The notes under the pieces: model-generated
The model's input: only the letters and a program-made list of their open reading frames with translations
What the model was told of the DNA's origin: nothing
Database searches by the model: none
From: Flavobacterium sp.
GTDB lineage: Bacteria > Bacteroidota > Bacteroidia > Flavobacteriales > Flavobacteriaceae
Assembly: GCA_012270005.1 (NCBI GenBank)
Contig: JAAXJD010000007.1
Coordinates: 1-34,906 of the forward strand
Length of the DNA: 34,906 nt
Reading direction: 5' to 3'
Made by a program: the position numbers and the translations under genes
Shown here: piece by piece, positions 322 to 26,587 of the stretch
Layout: each line of letters begins with the position of its first letter
How positions within the stretch are numbered: position 1 is the stretch's first letter

Positions 322-726
322 ATGTTACTGACAAATGATCTAATGATTTTGGTAGCCCTTGGCGCCGCCTGCGGGCTGTACGCTTTTGTGGCGTTTTGCA
401 TGCAAAAGCTTTCTGTAAACAAAAAAGAGCAAATGCTTAGCAAGTACTCAGAACTGCGCAGGCAGTCGCTTACGCTTCAGGAAGTGGTAAGCAACTACCT
501 CCTTGCAGATGATGCTGATAAAAGACTGCTTAGCGGTGAGCTAACCTGTGCTGATTTGTACAGGCAGCTAAAAAGTAACCACGTGTATAACTTGTCAGAC
601 AAATATTTGTCTAAAGTTAAAAAGAGCAACAACCTGCTGTTTTTAAATAGAGCCGAGCGTAAACTGTACGAACAGGAAGAAAGGCTTAACAACGCACAAC
701 GTCTTATATCTTCGGCATCCAGGTAA
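322..726 (+). CDS. Small membrane-anchored protein of unknown function (paralogue of 26147-26587)
   Basis: I do not recognise a named family. The 134-aa protein has one N-terminal hydrophobic segment (about residues 6-28) followed by a basic, helical, soluble part rich in Lys, Arg, Leu and Glu. Residues about 51-99 match the minus-strand protein at 26147-26587: both share LQE, a short YLL/YIL-type stretch, ADK, a TC pair, NH, NLSDK and a late A..K.L.EQE pattern. The two are therefore paralogues in one window, with the same topology. The start at 322 is the first ATG before the hydrophobic segment. A strong terminator follows at 751-778, so it appears to be a single-gene transcript. Inner-membrane location with a cytoplasmic helical tail is inferred. 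Confidence 0.7.
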   Translation: MLLTNDLMILVALGAACGLYAFVAFCMQKLSVNKKEQMLSKYSELRRQSLTLQEVVSNYLLADDADKRLLSGELTCADLYRQLKSNHVYNLSDKYLSKVKKSNNLLFLNRAERKLYEQEERLNNAQRLISSASR

Positions 727-778: not shown

Positions 779-839
779 GGTTTACAATGGTATAGGTTTA
801 CAGAAATGGCTACCTTTAGGCATAGCAATAACCCCGGCG

Positions 840-1073
840 ATGATAAAAGAGTCTAAAACCGACGTAAAGATAGCTTTCCGTAAACCGGCATACCCCATAA
901 TACCTGAGCTTATGGAGTATCTGGAAAAATACAACCGTACCACAAAGTCGACCTTGCTGTATGATGATTTGCTGAGGTTTTCGGGAGGTATTTCGGTGTA
1001 CGACAAGGAGGGGAACGACACCCTTTGGTTACGTGTTTTCTATCCTGAGTTTGAACAGGCGGAGATAGAGGCG
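840..1073 (+). pseudogene. Truncated 5' copy of the kinase-like gene (78 codons)
   Basis: This segment encodes exactly the same first 78 residues as the intact gene at 2204-3265 and then stops matching at 1074, where the sequence runs into the tail of the opposite-strand gene 1075-2094. The frame reads on for about 27 foreign codons to a stop at 1154. The two copies differ at nine positions, all third-codon and all synonymous. Similarity also extends about 30 bases upstream of the ATG with one indel, including a promoter-like TACCTTTA (TATCTTTA in the intact copy). An in-frame ATG exists at 777, but it overlaps the terminator tail; 840 is the homologous start. A partial duplication or recombination scar is the likely explanation. 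Confidence 0.85.
840..1073 (+). repeat. Direct repeat, copy 1 (partner 2204-2437)
   Basis: 234 bases with nine mismatches to 2204-2437, plus weaker matching about 30 bases further upstream (from about 810 and about 2171). The repeats flank a unique ~1.1-kb block holding one complete gene. No transposase and no terminal inverted repeats are seen in the block. Confidence 0.9.
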
Positions 1074-1074
1074 A

Positions 1075-2094
1075 TTAATTACAGTCATGTAATGCGACAA
1101 CTTCTTCAAAGGCACTGTAAAAAAACTCCTTATCATAAACAGGGGAGGGGGTGATATTGTACCTGAAGTCAAAATTATTGCGGGTTCCGTACTTAAAAAT
1201 GAGTTTTTTTTCAAGGTCGGTGATGTTTTCAAGGAAACATTTCCTTCTAGTTTGGTTTATTTCGGCTAGTTGTTCAATTTCTTTTTTACGATAGAGTTTG
1301 CATAGGCTTATTTTAAATAGCCACATACCAGTATCTCCAAAAACAGCATCGGTCATTTCCATAATCTGGGATACATTATAGTGAGTAATAGTGCCATTGC
1401 TTAAGTTGCTAATAAATAGTGCTTTTATTTCATTAATCAGCTGTCTGTCACGTCCCATTTCAAGATAATGCAGCAGTACAATATCGCCCTTGCTCATATA
1501 TCTGATTATGGTGTCATTACTAATGCGAGCTCCCATTTTTTTCTCTGAATAAATACCGTTCACTTTAATAAATGCCATTATATTTTGCGTATTAGTTCTA
1601 AATAGATTCTCTAAGGTATCAGGGGTATGGCCCAGCTCGCGATATTTTGTGAGGCGTAGTCTGTTGTAGGTAGAATCTAGGGTAACAAATTCTTGTATTT
1701 GTTTATTGTAAGTCCCGTTTACCTTCATGTTTTTCTGTTTGCTTTGCTCTGCCAGTTTCATTATTTTAATAAATGCCGGGTCATCTTTGTAGGGACTAAA
1801 AATTTTTTTCCTGAAAAACTTTTCTCCAACGCCTTTTTCAGCCAACTTTCGAGAGTAAGAGTATACCATTTTGGTGTCGTTCAGTTTTGCCGCACAAGCA
1901 GCAGCATTGTAAAGGTCTACCGAAAAATTGGCTATTTCAAAAGCTTTGTTGTATTCTCTTAAAGCATCGTAGTATCGGGCTTCGGTAATGCTTAGTTCAG
2001 CGAGGTTGGTAAGCCTTTTGTAGTTTTGCCCTATGGTTTGTGCCTTGGTAAATGAAATGATTGAAAGGGTAAATAGTAGTACTGCTTGTTTCAT
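1075..2094 (-). CDS. Secreted TPR-like protein of unknown function
   Basis: A 339-aa protein with a clear signal peptide (residues 1-18, cleavage likely after Lys-Ala before Gln). Residues about 25-110 look like tetratricopeptide-type helices (a segment with YDALREYNKAFE and a following AAACAAKLND helix). The second half has no domain I can name with confidence; short blocks (a VG-like ARI segment, an LLHYLEM segment, a late GTITHYNVSQ segment) faintly recall the bacteroidetal DUF6624 group, but this is a weak guess. The stop codon lies at 1077-1075, immediately beside the end of the duplicated 840-1073 segment, so the gene is exactly the payload between two direct repeats. Its base composition looks more AT-rich than the flanking kinase-like gene, by eye. 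Periplasmic or surface location is inferred. Confidence 0.75.
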   Translation of the reverse strand: MKQAVLLFTLSIISFTKAQTIGQNYKRLTNLAELSITEARYYDALREYNKAFEIANFSVDLYNAAACAAKLNDTKMVYSYSRKLAEKGVGEKFFRKKIFSPYKDDPAFIKIMKLAEQSKQKNMKVNGTYNKQIQEFVTLDSTYNRLRLTKYRELGHTPDTLENLFRTNTQNIMAFIKVNGIYSEKKMGARISNDTIIRYMSKGDIVLLHYLEMGRDRQLINEIKALFISNLSNGTITHYNVSQIMEMTDAVFGDTGMWLFKISLCKLYRKKEIEQLAEINQTRRKCFLENITDLEKKLIFKYGTRNNFDFRYNITPSPVYDKEFFYSAFEEVVALHDCN

Positions 2095-2203
2095 AAGAGG
2101 TTGATTTTATAGTATAAACGGTATTGTGATTGAAATATTTCCTTAGGAATTAATCACGATTAAAACGCATTAAGTATCTTTAGCAATAGCAATAATCCTG
2201 GCG

Positions 2204-3265
2204 ATGATAAAAGAGTCTAAAACCGACGTAAAGATAGCTTTCCGTAAACCGGCGTACCCCATAATACCTGAACTTATGGAGTATCTGGAAAAATACAACC
2301 GTACCACAAAGTCGACCTTGCTGTATGATGATTTGCTGAGGTTTTCGGGAGGTATTTCGGTGTACGACAAGGAGGGAAACGACACCCTTTGGTTACGCGT
2401 TTTTTATCCCGAGTTTGAACAGGCAGAGATAGAAGCAGGCCTTAACAAAATTTACACCCTTTTACATTCTGATGGTGATGAAGATACCCTGCCGTACCTT
2501 ACGGTAGATTCTATTGAGTTCTGCACCTTCGGTAATTCTAAACCGTTCCGTATACGGGTTCGGAATATTCTTAATGATAATTATACCAACTTTTACATAA
2601 AAAAGGCCGATGCCTCGCGCATTTACGGGCTGGAAATGGAAGACCTCTTATCGCCTAACCGCGTAAATTACCTGGTGTACAAAGACACGCTTATAGAGGA
2701 GCACATCCTCGGCATACCCGGAGATGTTTTTATAAAACAACACCTGGATAAATGTACCGAACTCGAAAAATCACAGTTGGCCAAAGAGTTTGTAAAGTTT
2801 AACGAGCGCTGCATGGTAGGGCTTTTAGGCGATATGCGCTCGTATAACTATGTGGTTATACCCACGCATGATTATGATCAGGTGGTGTACCGCATACGTG
2901 CCATAGATTTCGACCAACAGTCGTATGAAGGGAACCTCAAAATTTACCTGCCGCAGTACTTTAAAGAAAACTTCAGGATGGTGAAGCTGGTTATGGATAA
3001 GCTTAAACCAAATTCAGTAGAGCAATACCGCAAAGAAGTACGCTCAGTTATTGCCAAGCGTTTGCTAAACAGCCACGAGCGTTACCTGGATTTGGTAAGC
3101 ATACTAAAAAAAGACAACATAGCCCCAAAAGGCCACGTAACAGAACTGCGCACGGCTTTGCAAAAACTTACTTATGACTCTAAGTTTCGCCTTTGTGAAA
3201 ATATGGGAGACATAGCCGAAATAGGGCTGGAGTTTGTAATGAAAAACTACCGCAAGGCAGAGTAG
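2204..3265 (+). CDS. Uncharacterised protein with protein-kinase-like (APH/HipA-type) motifs
   Basis: 353 aa, no signal peptide, so cytoplasmic. I know no name for this family. Its central part has the order of motifs seen in kinase folds: a Lys pair at 133-134 in a beta-strand-like FYIKK, acidic residues at 144/146 in the next helix, a catalytic-loop-like GDMRSYNY with Asp210 and Asn215 in D-x4-N spacing, and a DFG-like IDFD with Asp235, twenty residues after Asn215. The C-terminal part is helical. No conventional Gly-rich loop is obvious. The start at 2204 is shared with the truncated copy at 840. A promoter-like TATCTTTA lies near 2175. The kinase assignment is inference from motif spacing only. 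Confidence 0.75.
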   Translation: MIKESKTDVKIAFRKPAYPIIPELMEYLEKYNRTTKSTLLYDDLLRFSGGISVYDKEGNDTLWLRVFYPEFEQAEIEAGLNKIYTLLHSDGDEDTLPYLTVDSIEFCTFGNSKPFRIRVRNILNDNYTNFYIKKADASRIYGLEMEDLLSPNRVNYLVYKDTLIEEHILGIPGDVFIKQHLDKCTELEKSQLAKEFVKFNERCMVGLLGDMRSYNYVVIPTHDYDQVVYRIRAIDFDQQSYEGNLKIYLPQYFKENFRMVKLVMDKLKPNSVEQYRKEVRSVIAKRLLNSHERYLDLVSILKKDNIAPKGHVTELRTALQKLTYDSKFRLCENMGDIAEIGLEFVMKNYRKAE

Positions 3266-3304: not shown

Positions 3305-3357
3305 GTTTGGTTATGGGTAAAAATGTACTTTAGTGGGTTATATACCGTTAACCAAAC
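3305..3357 (+). promoter_or_regulatory. Beta-galactosidase promoter region with flanking inverted repeat
   Basis: Perfect 9-base arms GTTTGGTTA (3305-3313) and TAACCAAAC (3349-3357) sit either side of TACTTTAG (3326-3333), which matches seven of eight positions of TAnnTTTG. The arrangement suggests operator half-sites around the promoter of the downstream GH2 gene. No cognate regulator is adjacent. Confidence 0.35.
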
Positions 3358-3364
3358 CCTTTTT

Positions 3365-6187
3365 ATGAAACCAAACCGGATGTTTTTATTCCTGCTGCTT
3401 TTTGTGGCATCTTTCGGCTATAGCCAGAATCCAATTTCCCGAGAAACGATTAACATAGATGCCGGCTGGCGCTTCGCCTTTGGTCATCCGCATGATACCG
3501 CTAAAGACTTTGGCCATGCCGAAGCGTATTTTTCTTATCTGGCCAAAACAGGTAGTGCCGATGGGCCTGCCGGTGCCGTGTTTGACGACCGCGCATGGCG
3601 ACAGTTAAACCTACCACACGACTGGGCGGTAGAGCAGCCCTTTAGTGAAAAAGCCAGCTATAGCCATGGGTTTCATGCGGCAGGAAAAGGTTTTCCGGAC
3701 AAAAGCATTGGGTGGTACCGCAAACAAATCAATATTTCCAAAGAGGATTTGGGGCGTATTATTACCCTGAAGTTTGACGGAGTGTTCCGTAATTGTAAGG
3801 TGTGGTTTAACGGGCATTTCCTGGGGACGGAAGAAAGCGGTTACAACAGTTTTGAATATGATGTTACGGCGTATGTAAAGTATGGCGAAAAAAATTCGAT
3901 TGCCGTACGTGTAGATGCCTCTATGGAAGAAGGCTGGTGGTATGAAGGCGCAGGGATTTATCGGCACGTGTACCTGCAAAAGACACAACCGCTGCACATA
4001 GCCACAAACGGAACGTATATTACCACCAAAATTAACGGAGCTAATGCTGAAGTAAATGTCGTGGCTACGCTGCTTAACCAGGGCAGTTATACAGGGGCTG
4101 TCGCTTTGCGCCATACGGTTTACGACACAGGTAATAAAGCGGTTGCTACAATTACAGAGCCTGTAACAGTACCCGATTTTTATAAAATGGCGGATAAAAA
4201 ATCGGGCCTTACAATTAGTAATGCGCGGCTTTGGGATATAGAGCATCCTAACCTTTACACTTTGGTTACCGAAGTGCTACAGGCGGATAAGCCCGTAGAC
4301 CGCTACGAAACCACATTTGGCATTCGCGAAATTCATTTTGATGCCGAGAAAGGCTTGTTTCTTAATGGTAAAGCTGTAAAACTAAAAGGGACCAATAACC
4401 ATCAGGATCACGCCGGTGTGGGTACGGCAATACCCGATGAGTTGCAGTACTGGCGTATTAAGCAGCTAAAAGACATGGGCAGTAATGCCTACCGCTGTTC
4501 GCACCATCCGCCTACGCCGGAGTTGCTCGATGCGTGCGACAAACTTGGCATGCTGGTGATTGACGAAACCCGCCTTATGGGTATTAACCAATACCATTTG
4601 GGCAACCTGAAACGCCTGATAGAGCGCGACCGCAACCACCCGAGTGTGTTTTGCTGGTCGGTAGGTAATGAGGAGTGGGCCATAGAAGGAAACATAACCG
4701 GCGAGCGCATTACGCAAGTCATGCAGGATTTTGCCCACAGCATAGATCCTACACGCCCTGTAACGGTGGGTATAAGTAGTGGTTTCCGGAGTGGAATTTC
4801 ATCTGTGGTAGAGGTTATGGGGTATAATTACCTGGGTAATGGCGATATTGATGCCCACCGCAACAAGTTTAAAAACCAGCCGGGTATGGGCACAGAGGAA
4901 GGTTCTACCTTTGCCACCCGGGGCGTGTATGTTACAGATGACGCCAGGCATTACCAAAGTGCTTACGACCGTAAGCCGCGCCCGTCTTTTTACAGCATAG
5001 AAGAAGGCTGGACGTTTTATGCCACACGCCCGTATCTTGCCGGTATGTTCATCTGGACCGGGTTTGACTATCGTGGTGAGCCTACGCCATACGGCTGGCC
5101 GTCGGTTACGTCGTATTTTGGTATGATGGACGTGTGCGGTTTCCCTAAAGATAATGTATACTACCTAAAATCGTGGTGGGGTACAGCGCCCGTATTGCAC
5201 CTGCTGCCACACTGGAACTGGCCGGGAAAAGAGGGTAAAGAGATAAACGTATGGGTGCATACAAATTGTGATGAAGTAGAACTGTTTCTTAATAAAAAAA
5301 GCCTAGGCAAAAAAAGTGTAAAACAGTACAGTCACTTAGAATGGAACGTTATTTACCAACCCGGTACGCTTGAGGCGGTGGGCTATAAAAACGATAAAAA
5401 GGTAATGGTAGATGTGCAAAAAACAACAGGCACACCTGCCGCGATTAAGCTAACGCCGCATAAAACTACCCTAAAAAGCGCAACAGATGTAGCTGTGGTT
5501 ACGGTAGCTGTTTTAGATAAAAAAGGGCTGCATGTGCCGGTAGCCGATAACATGATTACTTTCAGTATAAAAAATGGTAAAATACTGGGTGTGGGCAATG
5601 GCGACCCTACTTCGCTGGAAAATGATAAGTTTATAGATGATGTACAGTTGGTTCCTCTAACCGGGTTAAAAGAACAGGCGCTTAGTACGAGCGTGCTGCC
5701 GGATGTACTTCCTACATACAAAGAAACCGCCTGGGAAGAGGGTTTTAAAGACCGCGATTATAAAAATTTGGCTCCTGCGTATGCTTATAAAGCTTCTTTT
5801 GGGTTAGATAAAGTGGAGGGTACACACGTAACGTTTTATTACAAAAAGATAGGTGTAGAGGCTGTTGTGTTTGTAAATGGCATTAAGGTTTCGGCTTCTG
5901 CCGATGATGCTCATAAATTTGTGCTGGATGCAAAAATACTGAAACAGGGCGGCAACACCATGCACATTGTTGCCACACCCGAGCATAAAGTACACGACTG
6001 GGATGTTATTAACGCCGATCCCGGCGTACTACAGGTAGTAACCCCCGCTGCTCCTTACACGCGAAAGTTATTTAATGGCTATGCCCAAATCATTGTACAG
6101 CCTGATGGCAGCGGTAAGACTATTGAATTACGTGCTACATCAAAAGGTGTGAAAGAAGCAACATTGAATTTAACTGTAAATAAATAA
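3365..6187 (+). CDS. Glycoside hydrolase family 2 beta-galactosidase, secreted
   Basis: An exported GH2 enzyme of about 940 aa, expected to release terminal beta-galactose (or a related sugar) from plant or algal oligosaccharides in the periplasm or at the surface. A signal peptide follows the ATG at 3365 (hydrophobic run ending in ...FGYSQ); the earlier ATG at 3323 would put an extra 14 residues in front of it and is less likely. In order: GH2 sugar-binding jelly roll, immunoglobulin-like sandwich, TIM barrel with the acid/base Glu in SVGNEEW (about residue 435) and a nucleophile Glu in GTEEGST (about residue 510), then C-terminal beta domains like those of the GalA/GalB-type enzymes that carry DUF4982. 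It stands alone, without SusC/SusD partners in this window. It converges on the GNAT gene 17 bases downstream. Substrate specificity within GH2 cannot be read from sequence. Confidence 0.9.
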   Translation: MKPNRMFLFLLLFVASFGYSQNPISRETINIDAGWRFAFGHPHDTAKDFGHAEAYFSYLAKTGSADGPAGAVFDDRAWRQLNLPHDWAVEQPFSEKASYSHGFHAAGKGFPDKSIGWYRKQINISKEDLGRIITLKFDGVFRNCKVWFNGHFLGTEESGYNSFEYDVTAYVKYGEKNSIAVRVDASMEEGWWYEGAGIYRHVYLQKTQPLHIATNGTYITTKINGANAEVNVVATLLNQGSYTGAVALRHTVYDTGNKAVATITEPVTVPDFYKMADKKSGLTISNARLWDIEHPNLYTLVTEVLQADKPVDRYETTFGIREIHFDAEKGLFLNGKAVKLKGTNNHQDHAGVGTAIPDELQYWRIKQLKDMGSNAYRCSHHPPTPELLDACDKLGMLVIDETRLMGINQYHLGNLKRLIERDRNHPSVFCWSVGNEEWAIEGNITGERITQVMQDFAHSIDPTRPVTVGISSGFRSGISSVVEVMGYNYLGNGDIDAHRNKFKNQPGMGTEEGSTFATRGVYVTDDARHYQSAYDRKPRPSFYSIEEGWTFYATRPYLAGMFIWTGFDYRGEPTPYGWPSVTSYFGMMDVCGFPKDNVYYLKSWWGTAPVLHLLPHWNWPGKEGKEINVWVHTNCDEVELFLNKKSLGKKSVKQYSHLEWNVIYQPGTLEAVGYKNDKKVMVDVQKTTGTPAAIKLTPHKTTLKSATDVAVVTVAVLDKKGLHVPVADNMITFSIKNGKILGVGNGDPTSLENDKFIDDVQLVPLTGLKEQALSTSVLPDVLPTYKETAWEEGFKDRDYKNLAPAYAYKASFGLDKVEGTHVTFYYKKIGVEAVVFVNGIKVSASADDAHKFVLDAKILKQGGNTMHIVATPEHKVHDWDVINADPGVLQVVTPAAPYTRKLFNGYAQIIVQPDGSGKTIELRATSKGVKEATLNLTVNK

Positions 6188-8266: not shown

Positions 8267-9406
8267 ATGGGTATGGAAACAGGAAGAAGAAAAGGGTTTA
8301 AATTTAGCACTTACAGCGCCGCTCCCCAGTCGGTTTTTGATAAGCTACTTGAAATTTTTACCGAGCTCATTACCCATACTTCGGGTGATTTTGATGAAGC
8401 CATAGACTGGTTACGCCAGCTGGATAAAGAATACGAGCTTACCACACCGGAATATACCATAGACGATTTTATAGAAGACCTTAAAAAGAAAGGCTATATC
8501 CGTGAAGAAATCCGCCCGGATGGCGATGGAAACGGAGAGGGCAGTGGTATAAAACTGGGTTCTAAGCTGGAGCAGAACATACGGCAGCAGGCACTAAAAC
8601 AGATATTTGGTAACCTGAAGCGCAACGGATCGGGCAACCACCGTACCAAATACAGCGGCGCGGGCGACGAACATACCGGGGAGTTTCGTGATTATCGTTT
8701 TGGCGATGCGCTGGAAAAGATTTCGCTTACCGAAAGCCTTAAAAACGCCCAGGTAAATAATGGCGTGGATGCGTTTCGCATTACCGAAGATGATCTTGTG
8801 GTAGAAGACAGCCACCATAAGGCGCAGATGAGCACGGTGCTGATGATAGACATTAGCCACAGTATGATTCTGTACGGGGAAGACCGCATAACACCGGCTA
8901 AAAAAGTGGCCATGGCATTAGCCGAACTCATTACCACGCGCTACCCTAAAGACACGCTCGATATACTGGTGTTTGGCAACGACGCCTGGCCTATTGAGAT
9001 TAAAGATTTGCCATACCTGCAAGTAGGGCCATACCATACCAATACCGTGGCAGGGCTACAACTGGCTATGGACTTACTACGCCGTAAGCGCAATACCAAT
9101 AAGCAGATTTTTATGATTACCGATGGCAAGCCGAGCTGTGTACGCGAGAGCGACGGTACTTATTATATGAACAGCAACGGGCTGGACGAGTATATCGTTG
9201 AAAAATGCTACACCATGGCGACACAGGCGCGTAAACTGCATATACCCATAACCACCTTTATGATAGCGCAGGACAGCTACCTGCAACGTTTTGTACGCGA
9301 GTTTACTGAAGCCAACCAGGGCAAGGCTTTTTACACCGGACTGAAAGGCTTGGGTGAGATGATTTTTGAGGATTATGAAGCGAACAGGAAAAAGAGAATT
9401 AAATAA
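8267..9406 (+). CDS. von Willebrand factor A domain protein, MoxR partner
   Basis: 379 aa, cytoplasmic. Residues about 190-370 form a vWA (MIDAS) domain: DISHS (Asp195, Ser197, Ser199) is the DxSxS metal site, a threonine follows in the HTNTVAG stretch, and ITDGKPS supplies the later Asp. The N-terminal half is acidic, mainly helical, and without a known domain. Such vWA proteins bind partner proteins in a metal-dependent way and act with a MoxR-type AAA+ ATPase as a chaperone or chelatase-like machine; here that ATPase is the next gene (9524), 117 bases downstream. A second ATG at 8273 is possible. The client is unknown. Confidence 0.88.
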   Translation: MGMETGRRKGFKFSTYSAAPQSVFDKLLEIFTELITHTSGDFDEAIDWLRQLDKEYELTTPEYTIDDFIEDLKKKGYIREEIRPDGDGNGEGSGIKLGSKLEQNIRQQALKQIFGNLKRNGSGNHRTKYSGAGDEHTGEFRDYRFGDALEKISLTESLKNAQVNNGVDAFRITEDDLVVEDSHHKAQMSTVLMIDISHSMILYGEDRITPAKKVAMALAELITTRYPKDTLDILVFGNDAWPIEIKDLPYLQVGPYHTNTVAGLQLAMDLLRRKRNTNKQIFMITDGKPSCVRESDGTYYMNSNGLDEYIVEKCYTMATQARKLHIPITTFMIAQDSYLQRFVREFTEANQGKAFYTGLKGLGEMIFEDYEANRKKRIK

Positions 9407-9410
9407 TGGA

Positions 9411-9506
9411 TTAAGTACAAAGTATCAAGAATTAAGTATTAAGATTGGAAGCAAAATTTATACACCGAAAAGTCTTAATACTTTGTACTTAATACTTGAT
9501 ACTTAA
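9411..9506. repeat. Long imperfect hairpin made of NNTACTT heptads (element A)
   Basis: Left arm 9411-9444 and right arm 9473-9506 pair at 28 of 34 positions around a 28-base loop. Each arm is a run of seven-base words of the form NNTACTT (AATACTT, TGTACTT, GATACTT), repeated four or five times in register. It lies between the vWA and MoxR genes, inside what should be one operon, so it would be transcribed as a stable stem. Confidence 0.85.
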
Positions 9507-11054: not shown

Positions 11055-11220
11055 ACAGAGATACACGGAGGGAGCACTGAGCAACACGGAGAAAAAGAGG
11101 TTATACCTTTGGTATAAGAACACAGAGCTGTACGTTTTAACATACAGCTCTGTGAACTTTTGCTGAAGGCAGCCTCCAAAAAACTCTGTGAATCTCTGCG
11201 CTCCCTCCGTGTATCTCTGT
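11055..11220. repeat. Nested inverted-repeat element with CTCTGTG-type words (element B)
   Basis: Perfect 21-base outer arms (11055-11075 with 11200-11220), continuing inward as degenerate words of about ten bases (CTCTGTGAAT, CTCTGCGCTC, CTCCGTGTAT). Inside lie two clean hairpins: 11101-11107 with 11111-11117, and a perfect 12-base stem 11121-11132 with 11143-11154. It separates the MoxR gene from the convergent YgiN gene. CTCTGTG-type repeats occur between genes in many Bacteroidetes genomes, as far as I recall. Confidence 0.9.
11121..11154. terminator. Strong hairpin inside element B, possible terminator
   Basis: Twelve perfect base pairs with a 10-base loop, between convergent genes. It lacks a clear U tract on either side (AACTTTTG follows on the plus strand), so termination is only possible, not shown. 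Confidence 0.4.
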
Positions 11221-26178: not shown

Positions 26179-26587
26179 AGTTATAGCCTATAACCTTTAG
26201 TTTTGTCTGAGCATCTGTAAGTATAATTTCCTGTTCAGATAACATCTTATTTGCCTGTCTTAAAATTACACGGTTATGTGTGTTTTTAAGGCGGGCATAA
26301 TTTTTATCCGAAAGATTCTGGATGTGGTTACGCTGCAGGTGTTTTAAAAATTCTTTACAGGTTATGTTATCAAATAACACCTGTTTATCTGCACTGTTAG
26401 ATAAAATGTAGCTGCTAAGCTCCTCCTGTAGCTTAATTGATACAGACCTCAGTTGCTGAAAGCGATCAAGGATGTCGTTTTTCCTTGTAAGGTGGCCCGG
26501 CCTGCTGTTAAAAAACCGGGAAAGTATATACAATATCAGTATAACTCCCAGTGCAACAGCAATGGTATATTCTGGAATTAACGGCAT
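26147..26587 (-). CDS. Small membrane-anchored protein of unknown function (paralogue of 322-726)
   Basis: 146 aa with one N-terminal hydrophobic segment (about 8-26), then a basic helical tail. Residues about 52-102 match the protein at 322-726 (LQE, Y.L.....ADK, TC, LKHLQRNH versus LYRQLKSNH, NLSDK). No known family. Its last 10 codons overlap, on the other strand, the end of the lysozyme-like gene. No TAnnTTTG element is found upstream in 26588-26797, an AT-rich stretch of 210 bases in which I see nothing else. Confidence 0.68.
   Translation of the reverse strand: MPLIPEYTIAVALGVILILYILSRFFNSRPGHLTRKNDILDRFQQLRSVSIKLQEELSSYILSNSADKQVLFDNITCKEFLKHLQRNHIQNLSDKNYARLKNTHNRVILRQANKMLSEQEIILTDAQTKLKVIGYNFTAQPVQGAL

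What the first reader, a model, noticed from the sequence alone, without database searches (positions are those of the whole stretch)
840..2437. Direct repeats with only synonymous differences flank a one-gene insert
840-1073 and 2204-2437 encode identical 78-residue segments yet differ at nine third positions. Purely silent divergence means both copies evolved under protein selection, so the truncated copy was part of a working gene until recently. That fits recombination between two diverged alleles or paralogues, bringing in the 1.1-kb block, rather than simple local duplication. In a metagenome assembly it could instead be a join of two strains.
Basis: partly seen in the sequence, partly recalled or inferred. 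Interest (0 to 1): 0.62.

Follow-up and report, generated by a model that had tools for sequence, protein, structure and literature searches.

The report
Recombination scar with duplicated gene start
A normally single-copy bacterial gene has a leftover copy of its first quarter lying just upstream, separated from the intact gene by one extra foreign-looking gene; this is most simply an ordinary scar of DNA imported from a related strain, not a new kind of element.

Summary
Window 840-1073 and 2204-2437 encode the same 78 residues and differ at nine positions, all silent. The repeat really begins 29 bases earlier, at 811/2175. The right-hand copy starts an intact 353-aa gene (X); the left-hand copy is a truncated fragment. 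Between them lies one minus-strand gene (I, 339 aa, G+C 37% against 44% for the window). X occurs in 222 of 397 other genus genomes sampled; three gave two matches, of which one (G390) is an unresolved second piece at a contig end and two are split genes. The fragment is cut inside a predicted helix, before the invariant kinase-like residues, so it is probably dead. Nine silent and no replacement differences mean that the copies diverged as working alleles and that the truncation is recent. Best reading: DNA carrying I plus the X 5' end of a related strain was added by one-sided homologous recombination (single crossover or homology-facilitated illegitimate recombination); both are described in print. 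No close strain and no reads were available, so donor, route and an assembly effect stay open. Interest is low. X as an unnamed kinase-fold family may be the better lead.

The parts
811..1073 (+). Left copy (A) of the repeat: 29 bases upstream of the start codon plus codons 1-78 of gene X, then cut off
   Evidence: repeat offset 1364
840..1154 (+). Open frame of the truncated X copy: 78 X codons plus 26 codons, nearly all antisense to the 3' end of gene I; probable pseudogene
   Evidence: cut lies within predicted helix 70-88 of X and upstream of the invariant kinase-like residues
1074..2174 (.). Inserted block of 1101 bases not continuing the repeat; G+C 35.9%
   Evidence: one place in the genome at E <= 0.001
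1075..2094 (-). Gene I: 339 aa, signal-peptide-like start (my reading), weak TPR-type match below its cut-off; only remote relatives found
2095..2174 (.). Non-coding spacer between divergent I and X; expected to hold the start region of I and part of that of X (inference)
2175..2437 (+). Right copy (B) of the repeat, the 5' end of the intact gene X
2204..3265 (+). Gene X, intact, 353 aa, conserved flavobacterial protein, usually single-copy, with a predicted kinase-like fold

Best explanation
The locus is a recent recombination scar. A DNA piece from a related strain or sister species carried gene I next to that strain's version of the 5' end of X. It was added to the resident chromosome by homologous recombination in X on one side only. 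The other junction, at 1073/1074, joins the resident X codon 78 to the end of gene I without visible homology. Two routes give the same final order: (a) a small circle or circularised fragment holding I plus about 263 bases of X integrates by a single crossover; (b) homology-facilitated illegitimate recombination of a linear piece. Either way an intact X remains, now led by the sequence next to I, and a dead 5' fragment stays behind. Shown: anatomy, silent-only divergence, X usually single-copy elsewhere, lowish G+C of I. Inferred: import, donor, and the one-sided mechanism. Recombination between the two copies would remove I and leave X intact, so the state should be reversible (inferred).
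For: Nine silent and zero replacement differences, silent-site difference 0.18, upstream 5 of 29: allele-like divergence under selection. X in other genomes: 21 of 59, each with one match; 222 of 397, 219 with one match (rows). 125 of 125 X loci examined, own genome left out, have exactly one match to the first 78 residues (the two sources of loci may overlap in species, and many hold only 1.5 kb on each side). A and B are much closer to each other than to any relative: longest match to another locus 72% over 217 nt (L033; 49 rows). Gene I has G+C 36.6%; 5 of 140 ORFs of a sample of the same genome are as low or lower; no close relative was found. The fragment ends inside a helix. Published precedent: in an E. 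coli assay meant to catch HFIR, 56 of 60 clones gave the PCR product diagnostic of a duplication, and 14 sequenced ones carried 109-950 bp partial duplications of the target gene, explained by single crossover of a circle (PMC3240628, passages).
Against: No donor, no strain with the empty site and no reads were available. Low G+C of I is only about 1.9 s.d. from the mean. The uneven distribution of differences (2 of 59 against 12 of 45 near-neutral sites, Fisher p = 0.0008 with limits chosen after seeing the data; scan statistics p = 0.017-0.038) needs an extra conversion step or a mosaic donor. Microhomology at the joint cannot be tested without the parents. One relative (G390) has a second X 5' piece at a contig end, 87% identical over 658 nt to its own X locus, which could be a second copy, so two-copy states cannot be ruled out.
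Confidence: 0.58

Rival explanations
1. Old tandem duplication of X within this lineage: two full copies were kept under selection, then gene I was inserted and the first copy was cut down to its 5' end. Gene conversion kept the remainder alike.
For: Direct orientation and close spacing; quiet central tract compatible with conversion; G390 may hold a second X copy.
Against: 219 of 222 other genus genomes with X, and 21 of 21, gave one match. Similarity ends 29 bases upstream of the ATG. It needs a long two-copy phase to reach 0.18 silent difference.
Confidence: 0.16
2. Assembly effect in a short-read or metagenome assembly: two strain variants, or a chromosome and an extrachromosomal form, are laid end to end.
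For: The genome is a 227-contig draft and the window is one whole contig. A 104-base identical run (909-1012) could allow wrong phasing. The divergence is of the size expected between strains (my judgement). In the draft G390, two 87%-identical versions of the X 5' region meet at contig ends, which looks like strain variants in one assembly.
Against: No 15-mer spanning 1073/1074 or 2174/2175 recurs in the window or in 220 kb sampled from the genome, so there is no visible sequence on which to join. Stated contamination is 0.02. The same 220-kb sample (20 stretches, about 6% of the genome) shows one other local direct repeat, of 80 bases, so such structures are not common there.
Confidence: 0.16
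3. A site-specific mobile cassette that inserts in the 5' end of X and brings a replacement 5' end, so that X stays intact, as some prophages and integrative elements do (recalled), moved by an enzyme supplied in trans.
For: The anatomy (target-gene 5' end duplicated with silent changes, insert between) matches the end product of such integration.
Against: No recombinase in the insert, whose only long convincing frame is gene I. The insert is found once in its genome. In 7 loci of remote I relatives no flanking direct repeat and no X was found. No match in plasmids or viral contigs.
Confidence: 0.06
4. The truncated copy is a working gene in its own right (for example a regulator or decoy of X), kept by selection.
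For: No replacement change and an open frame of 104 codons from ATG 840.
Against: The cut falls inside predicted helix 70-88 and before the invariant kinase-like residues. The 26-codon tail is mostly antisense sequence of gene I. Recency alone explains the lack of decay.
Confidence: 0.04

Closest known systems
Single-crossover integration of a circularised fragment, with partial duplication of the target gene (PMC3240628, passages seen)
   Same: Insert flanked by a partial direct copy of the target gene (109-950 bp in 14 sequenced clones there, 262 bp here)
   Different: There the event was selected in E. coli during conjugation; here the copies differ at 14 positions and neither donor nor circle is known
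Homology-facilitated illegitimate recombination (PMC3240628 and PMC2884548, passages seen)
   Same: One end joined by homology, the other apparently without; inserts of about 1 kb
   Different: Typical products show a recipient deletion and 3-10 bp microhomology at the joint; neither can be tested here without the parents
Displaced effector and immunity gene arrays of V. cholerae T6SS clusters (PMC5361080, passages seen)
   Same: Imported module proposed to enter by one-sided homology, with the displaced gene kept alongside
   Different: There displaced immunity genes are kept and thought useful; here a 5' fragment of a conserved gene is left, and nothing found ties I or X to secretion systems

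Membership tests
Single-crossover (Campbell-type) integration | Insert lies between two direct copies of one chromosomal segment, one copy truncated | tested here: met
Single-crossover (Campbell-type) integration | The insert exists or existed as a circle carrying the shared segment | not testable with these tools
   no reads and no close strains found
Homology-facilitated illegitimate recombination | One junction without homology | tested here: inconclusive
   no similarity between A and B beyond 1073/1074, but the parental sequence is unknown
Homology-facilitated illegitimate recombination | 3-10 bp microhomology at the illegitimate joint and loss of recipient sequence | not testable with these tools
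   needs the parental sequences
Tandem gene duplication | Two full copies in close relatives | tested here: inconclusive
   219 of 222 other genus genomes with X gave one match, G390 may have a second copy, and no close strain was found
Site-specific integrative element | Own recombinase in the insert | tested here: not met
   gene I is the only long convincing frame in 1074-2174 and has no Pfam or NCBIfam recombinase match
Diversity-generating retroelement | Differences directed to one template base (adenine; recalled definition) | tested here: not met
   changes from A to B run in all four transition directions and are all silent

The most novel reading that the evidence does not exclude
A minimal one-gene cassette that travels with the 5' end of a conserved single-copy gene as its homology arm: it enters by recombination in that gene, leaves the gene intact, swaps its promoter, and can leave again by recombination between the arms, so that carriage of gene I and control of X are switchable without any recombinase.
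Probability: 0.05. Interest if true: 0.5.

Novelty: new member of a known kind. Interest (0 to 1): 0.2.

Why it matters
It is a readable snapshot of one-sided gene acquisition: the silent differences date the alleles and the lack of decay dates the event. Beyond that it is one scar in one draft genome. If several strains showed different genes placed behind the same X 5' arm, it would become a natural test of how single genes enter genomes without mobile elements.

Tried and rejected
Mobile element: no recombinase found in the insert, no second copy in the genome at E <= 0.001, no match for I in plasmids or viral contigs, none for I or X in the phage or defence profile libraries at E <= 0.1. 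I-like genes elsewhere flanked by repeats: 7 remote loci checked, none. A structure of gene I from a single sequence failed (mean pLDDT 44), so no fold search was made with it. DGR-type mutagenesis: not fitting, by the direction of the changes. Common local duplication in this assembly: 20 stretches of the genome (220,384 of 3,573,020 bases) show one other local repeat, 80 bases at 84% (L157); the 80 relative loci show five pairs, of which the two long ones (L129, L131) lie in neighbouring genes that look like paralogues and the three short ones were not followed up. A close strain: none found; best X relative 75% protein identity among the best 80 kept of 556 loci, 74% in 397 other genus genomes. 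Literature: three searches. One search listed 12 of 49 papers, one unrelated paper, none; I make no claim that such scars are absent from print.

Full report
Observation. The repeat is real. At offset 1364, window 840-1073 and 2204-2437 differ at nine third positions, without amino-acid change. It extends upstream to 811/2175, five further differences lying in 29 non-coding bases, and then similarity stops. Other direct repeats found in the window are 30-41 nt at 71-80%; self-BLAST lists this pair alone, E 2.4e-116. With about 50 silent sites the silent difference is 0.18, close to the 5 of 29 of the upstream stretch, so both look like near-neutral divergence.

Anatomy. In order: a small gene at 322-726; the truncated X copy (811-1073); an insert of 1101 bases (1074-2174) with one minus-strand gene I (1075-2094, 339 aa); the intact X (2204-3265, 353 aa); and a glycoside hydrolase family 2 gene in the frame 3323-6187. 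The truncated frame runs on for 26 codons, mostly antisense to gene I.

X elsewhere. X has no Pfam or NCBIfam match above a cut-off. In the genus sample, 222 of 397 other genomes have a match (its tally of 223 of 398 counts the own genome). 219 of them have one match. The other three were looked at: G558 has two halves at the ends of two contigs; G559 has adjacent matches in different frames of one gene; G390 has a complete gene and a piece (residues 11-115) at the start of another contig. The two G390 versions are 87% identical over 658 nt, upstream region included, and meet at contig ends: either strain variants in one assembly or a second copy, possibly even a like arrangement; I cannot tell. 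One search scored at most five candidates per genome, so a weak extra fragment could have been missed. In the first search 21 of 59 other genomes were hit, each once. Of 125 X loci fetched (own genome left out) all have exactly one match to the first 78 residues; the two sources may overlap in species and flanks are 1.5 to 5 kb or shorter. So no clear second case was seen, with G390 unresolved.

The fragment. A model of X from 35 sequences has mean pLDDT 86. Codon 78 falls within helix 70-88. K133, E146, D210, N215, D235 and D237 are invariant in all 35 sequences, and all lie beyond the cut. The fragment is therefore probably without function.

Gene I. G+C is 36.6%; 5 of 140 ORFs of at least 200 aa in a sample of the genome are as low or lower (mean 43.5%, s.d. 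3.6). Relatives are remote: 1 of 59 other genomes in the first search (33% over 80 residues) and 5 of 298 other genomes of the family sample (25-32% identity). None was found in genome contigs, viral contigs or plasmids. It has a TPR-type match below the cut-off (E 0.0044). Its function is unknown; a secreted helical-repeat protein is my guess from the start of the sequence and this weak match.

Timing. Nine silent and no replacement differences in about 184 replacement sites: if the left copy has been free of selection since truncation, its neutral change is bounded at about 1.6% per site at 95%. The alleles are thus much older than the scar. Gene conversion between copies could also hide decay. 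The differences are uneven: 2 of 59 near-neutral sites in 836-1012 against 12 of 45 outside. Fisher p is 0.0008, but I chose the limits after looking; scan tests give 0.017 to 0.038. This hints at conversion or crossover in the middle tract.

Mechanism. A fresh local duplication would make identical copies, and an old one should leave two-copy relatives, of which none is certain. Import from a related strain explains the allelic divergence, the foreign-looking gene, the loss of similarity upstream of 811, and the intact X. PMC3240628 (passages) reports that in an assay meant to catch homology-facilitated illegitimate recombination, 56 of 60 clones gave the product diagnostic of a duplication, and 14 sequenced ones carried duplications of 109 to 950 bp, explained by single crossover of a circular molecule. 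PMC2884548 (passages) names homology-assisted illegitimate recombination as a source of small variable segments and says that 10-18% of such segments are flanked by repeats, most of them under 30 bp. PMC5361080 (passages) proposes the same process for T6SS arrays. The locus fits this known kind of event. I cannot choose between circle and linear routes: both give the same order of parts and differ in which strain the rest of X comes from.

Assembly. The genome is a 227-contig draft with stated contamination 0.02. No 15-mer spanning either outer junction recurs in the window or in 220 kb sampled from the genome. The longest identical run between the copies is 104 bases, so phasing across it depends on read length. 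The 220-kb sample shows one other local repeat of 50 bases or more. An artefact is possible but not the first choice.

Side result. The X model matches kinase-fold structures. Foldseek: E 2e-4 to protein kinases, but TM only about 0.3 and rmsd 9 or more for the top five rows. VIA-align, a second look at Foldseek's first 1000 chains: Z 12.0, rmsd 4.7, 272 residues aligned, 10% identity, against Vps34, with many PI3-kinase rows within 1-2 of it. A profile search of the PDB by sequence found nothing. With invariant K133, D210, N215 and D235, X may be an unnamed kinase-like family of Flavobacteriia. The motif reading (GDxxxxN, IDFD) is recalled knowledge, and a shared fold shows no activity.

Noticed in passing
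window 2204-3265 and 34 aligned relatives (A1): X is a conserved, usually single-copy flavobacterial protein without a Pfam family whose model matches PI3K/protein-kinase folds (best VIA-align Z 12.0 to Vps34) with invariant K133, D210, N215 and D235: possibly an unnamed kinase-like family.
   Followed up: partly
L158 and L163 (G390 contigs C96 and C113): Two versions of the X 5' region, 87% identical over 658 nt, meet at contig ends in one draft genome: strain variants, or a second X copy like the one in the window.
   Followed up: partly
window 322-726 and 26201-26575: The small gene upstream of the scar has a 35%-identical relative on the minus strand in the same window, and relatives in 11 of 298 other genus genomes.
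   Followed up: no
L157:52-130 and 506-585 (G000 contig C220): An 80-base direct repeat (84%) flanks one minus-strand frame of 110 codons (GIY-YIG-like by eye) upstream of a long frame: another one-gene segment between repeats in this genome.
   Followed up: no
window 11055-11220 and 9403-9500: Long imperfect inverted repeats (37-nt and 31-nt arms).
   Followed up: no
L159/L165 (G559, contig C1 1081856-1082880): In this single-contig genome X is split into neighbouring matches at residues 9-75 and 71-350 in different frames, so X may be broken by a frameshift there.
   Followed up: no
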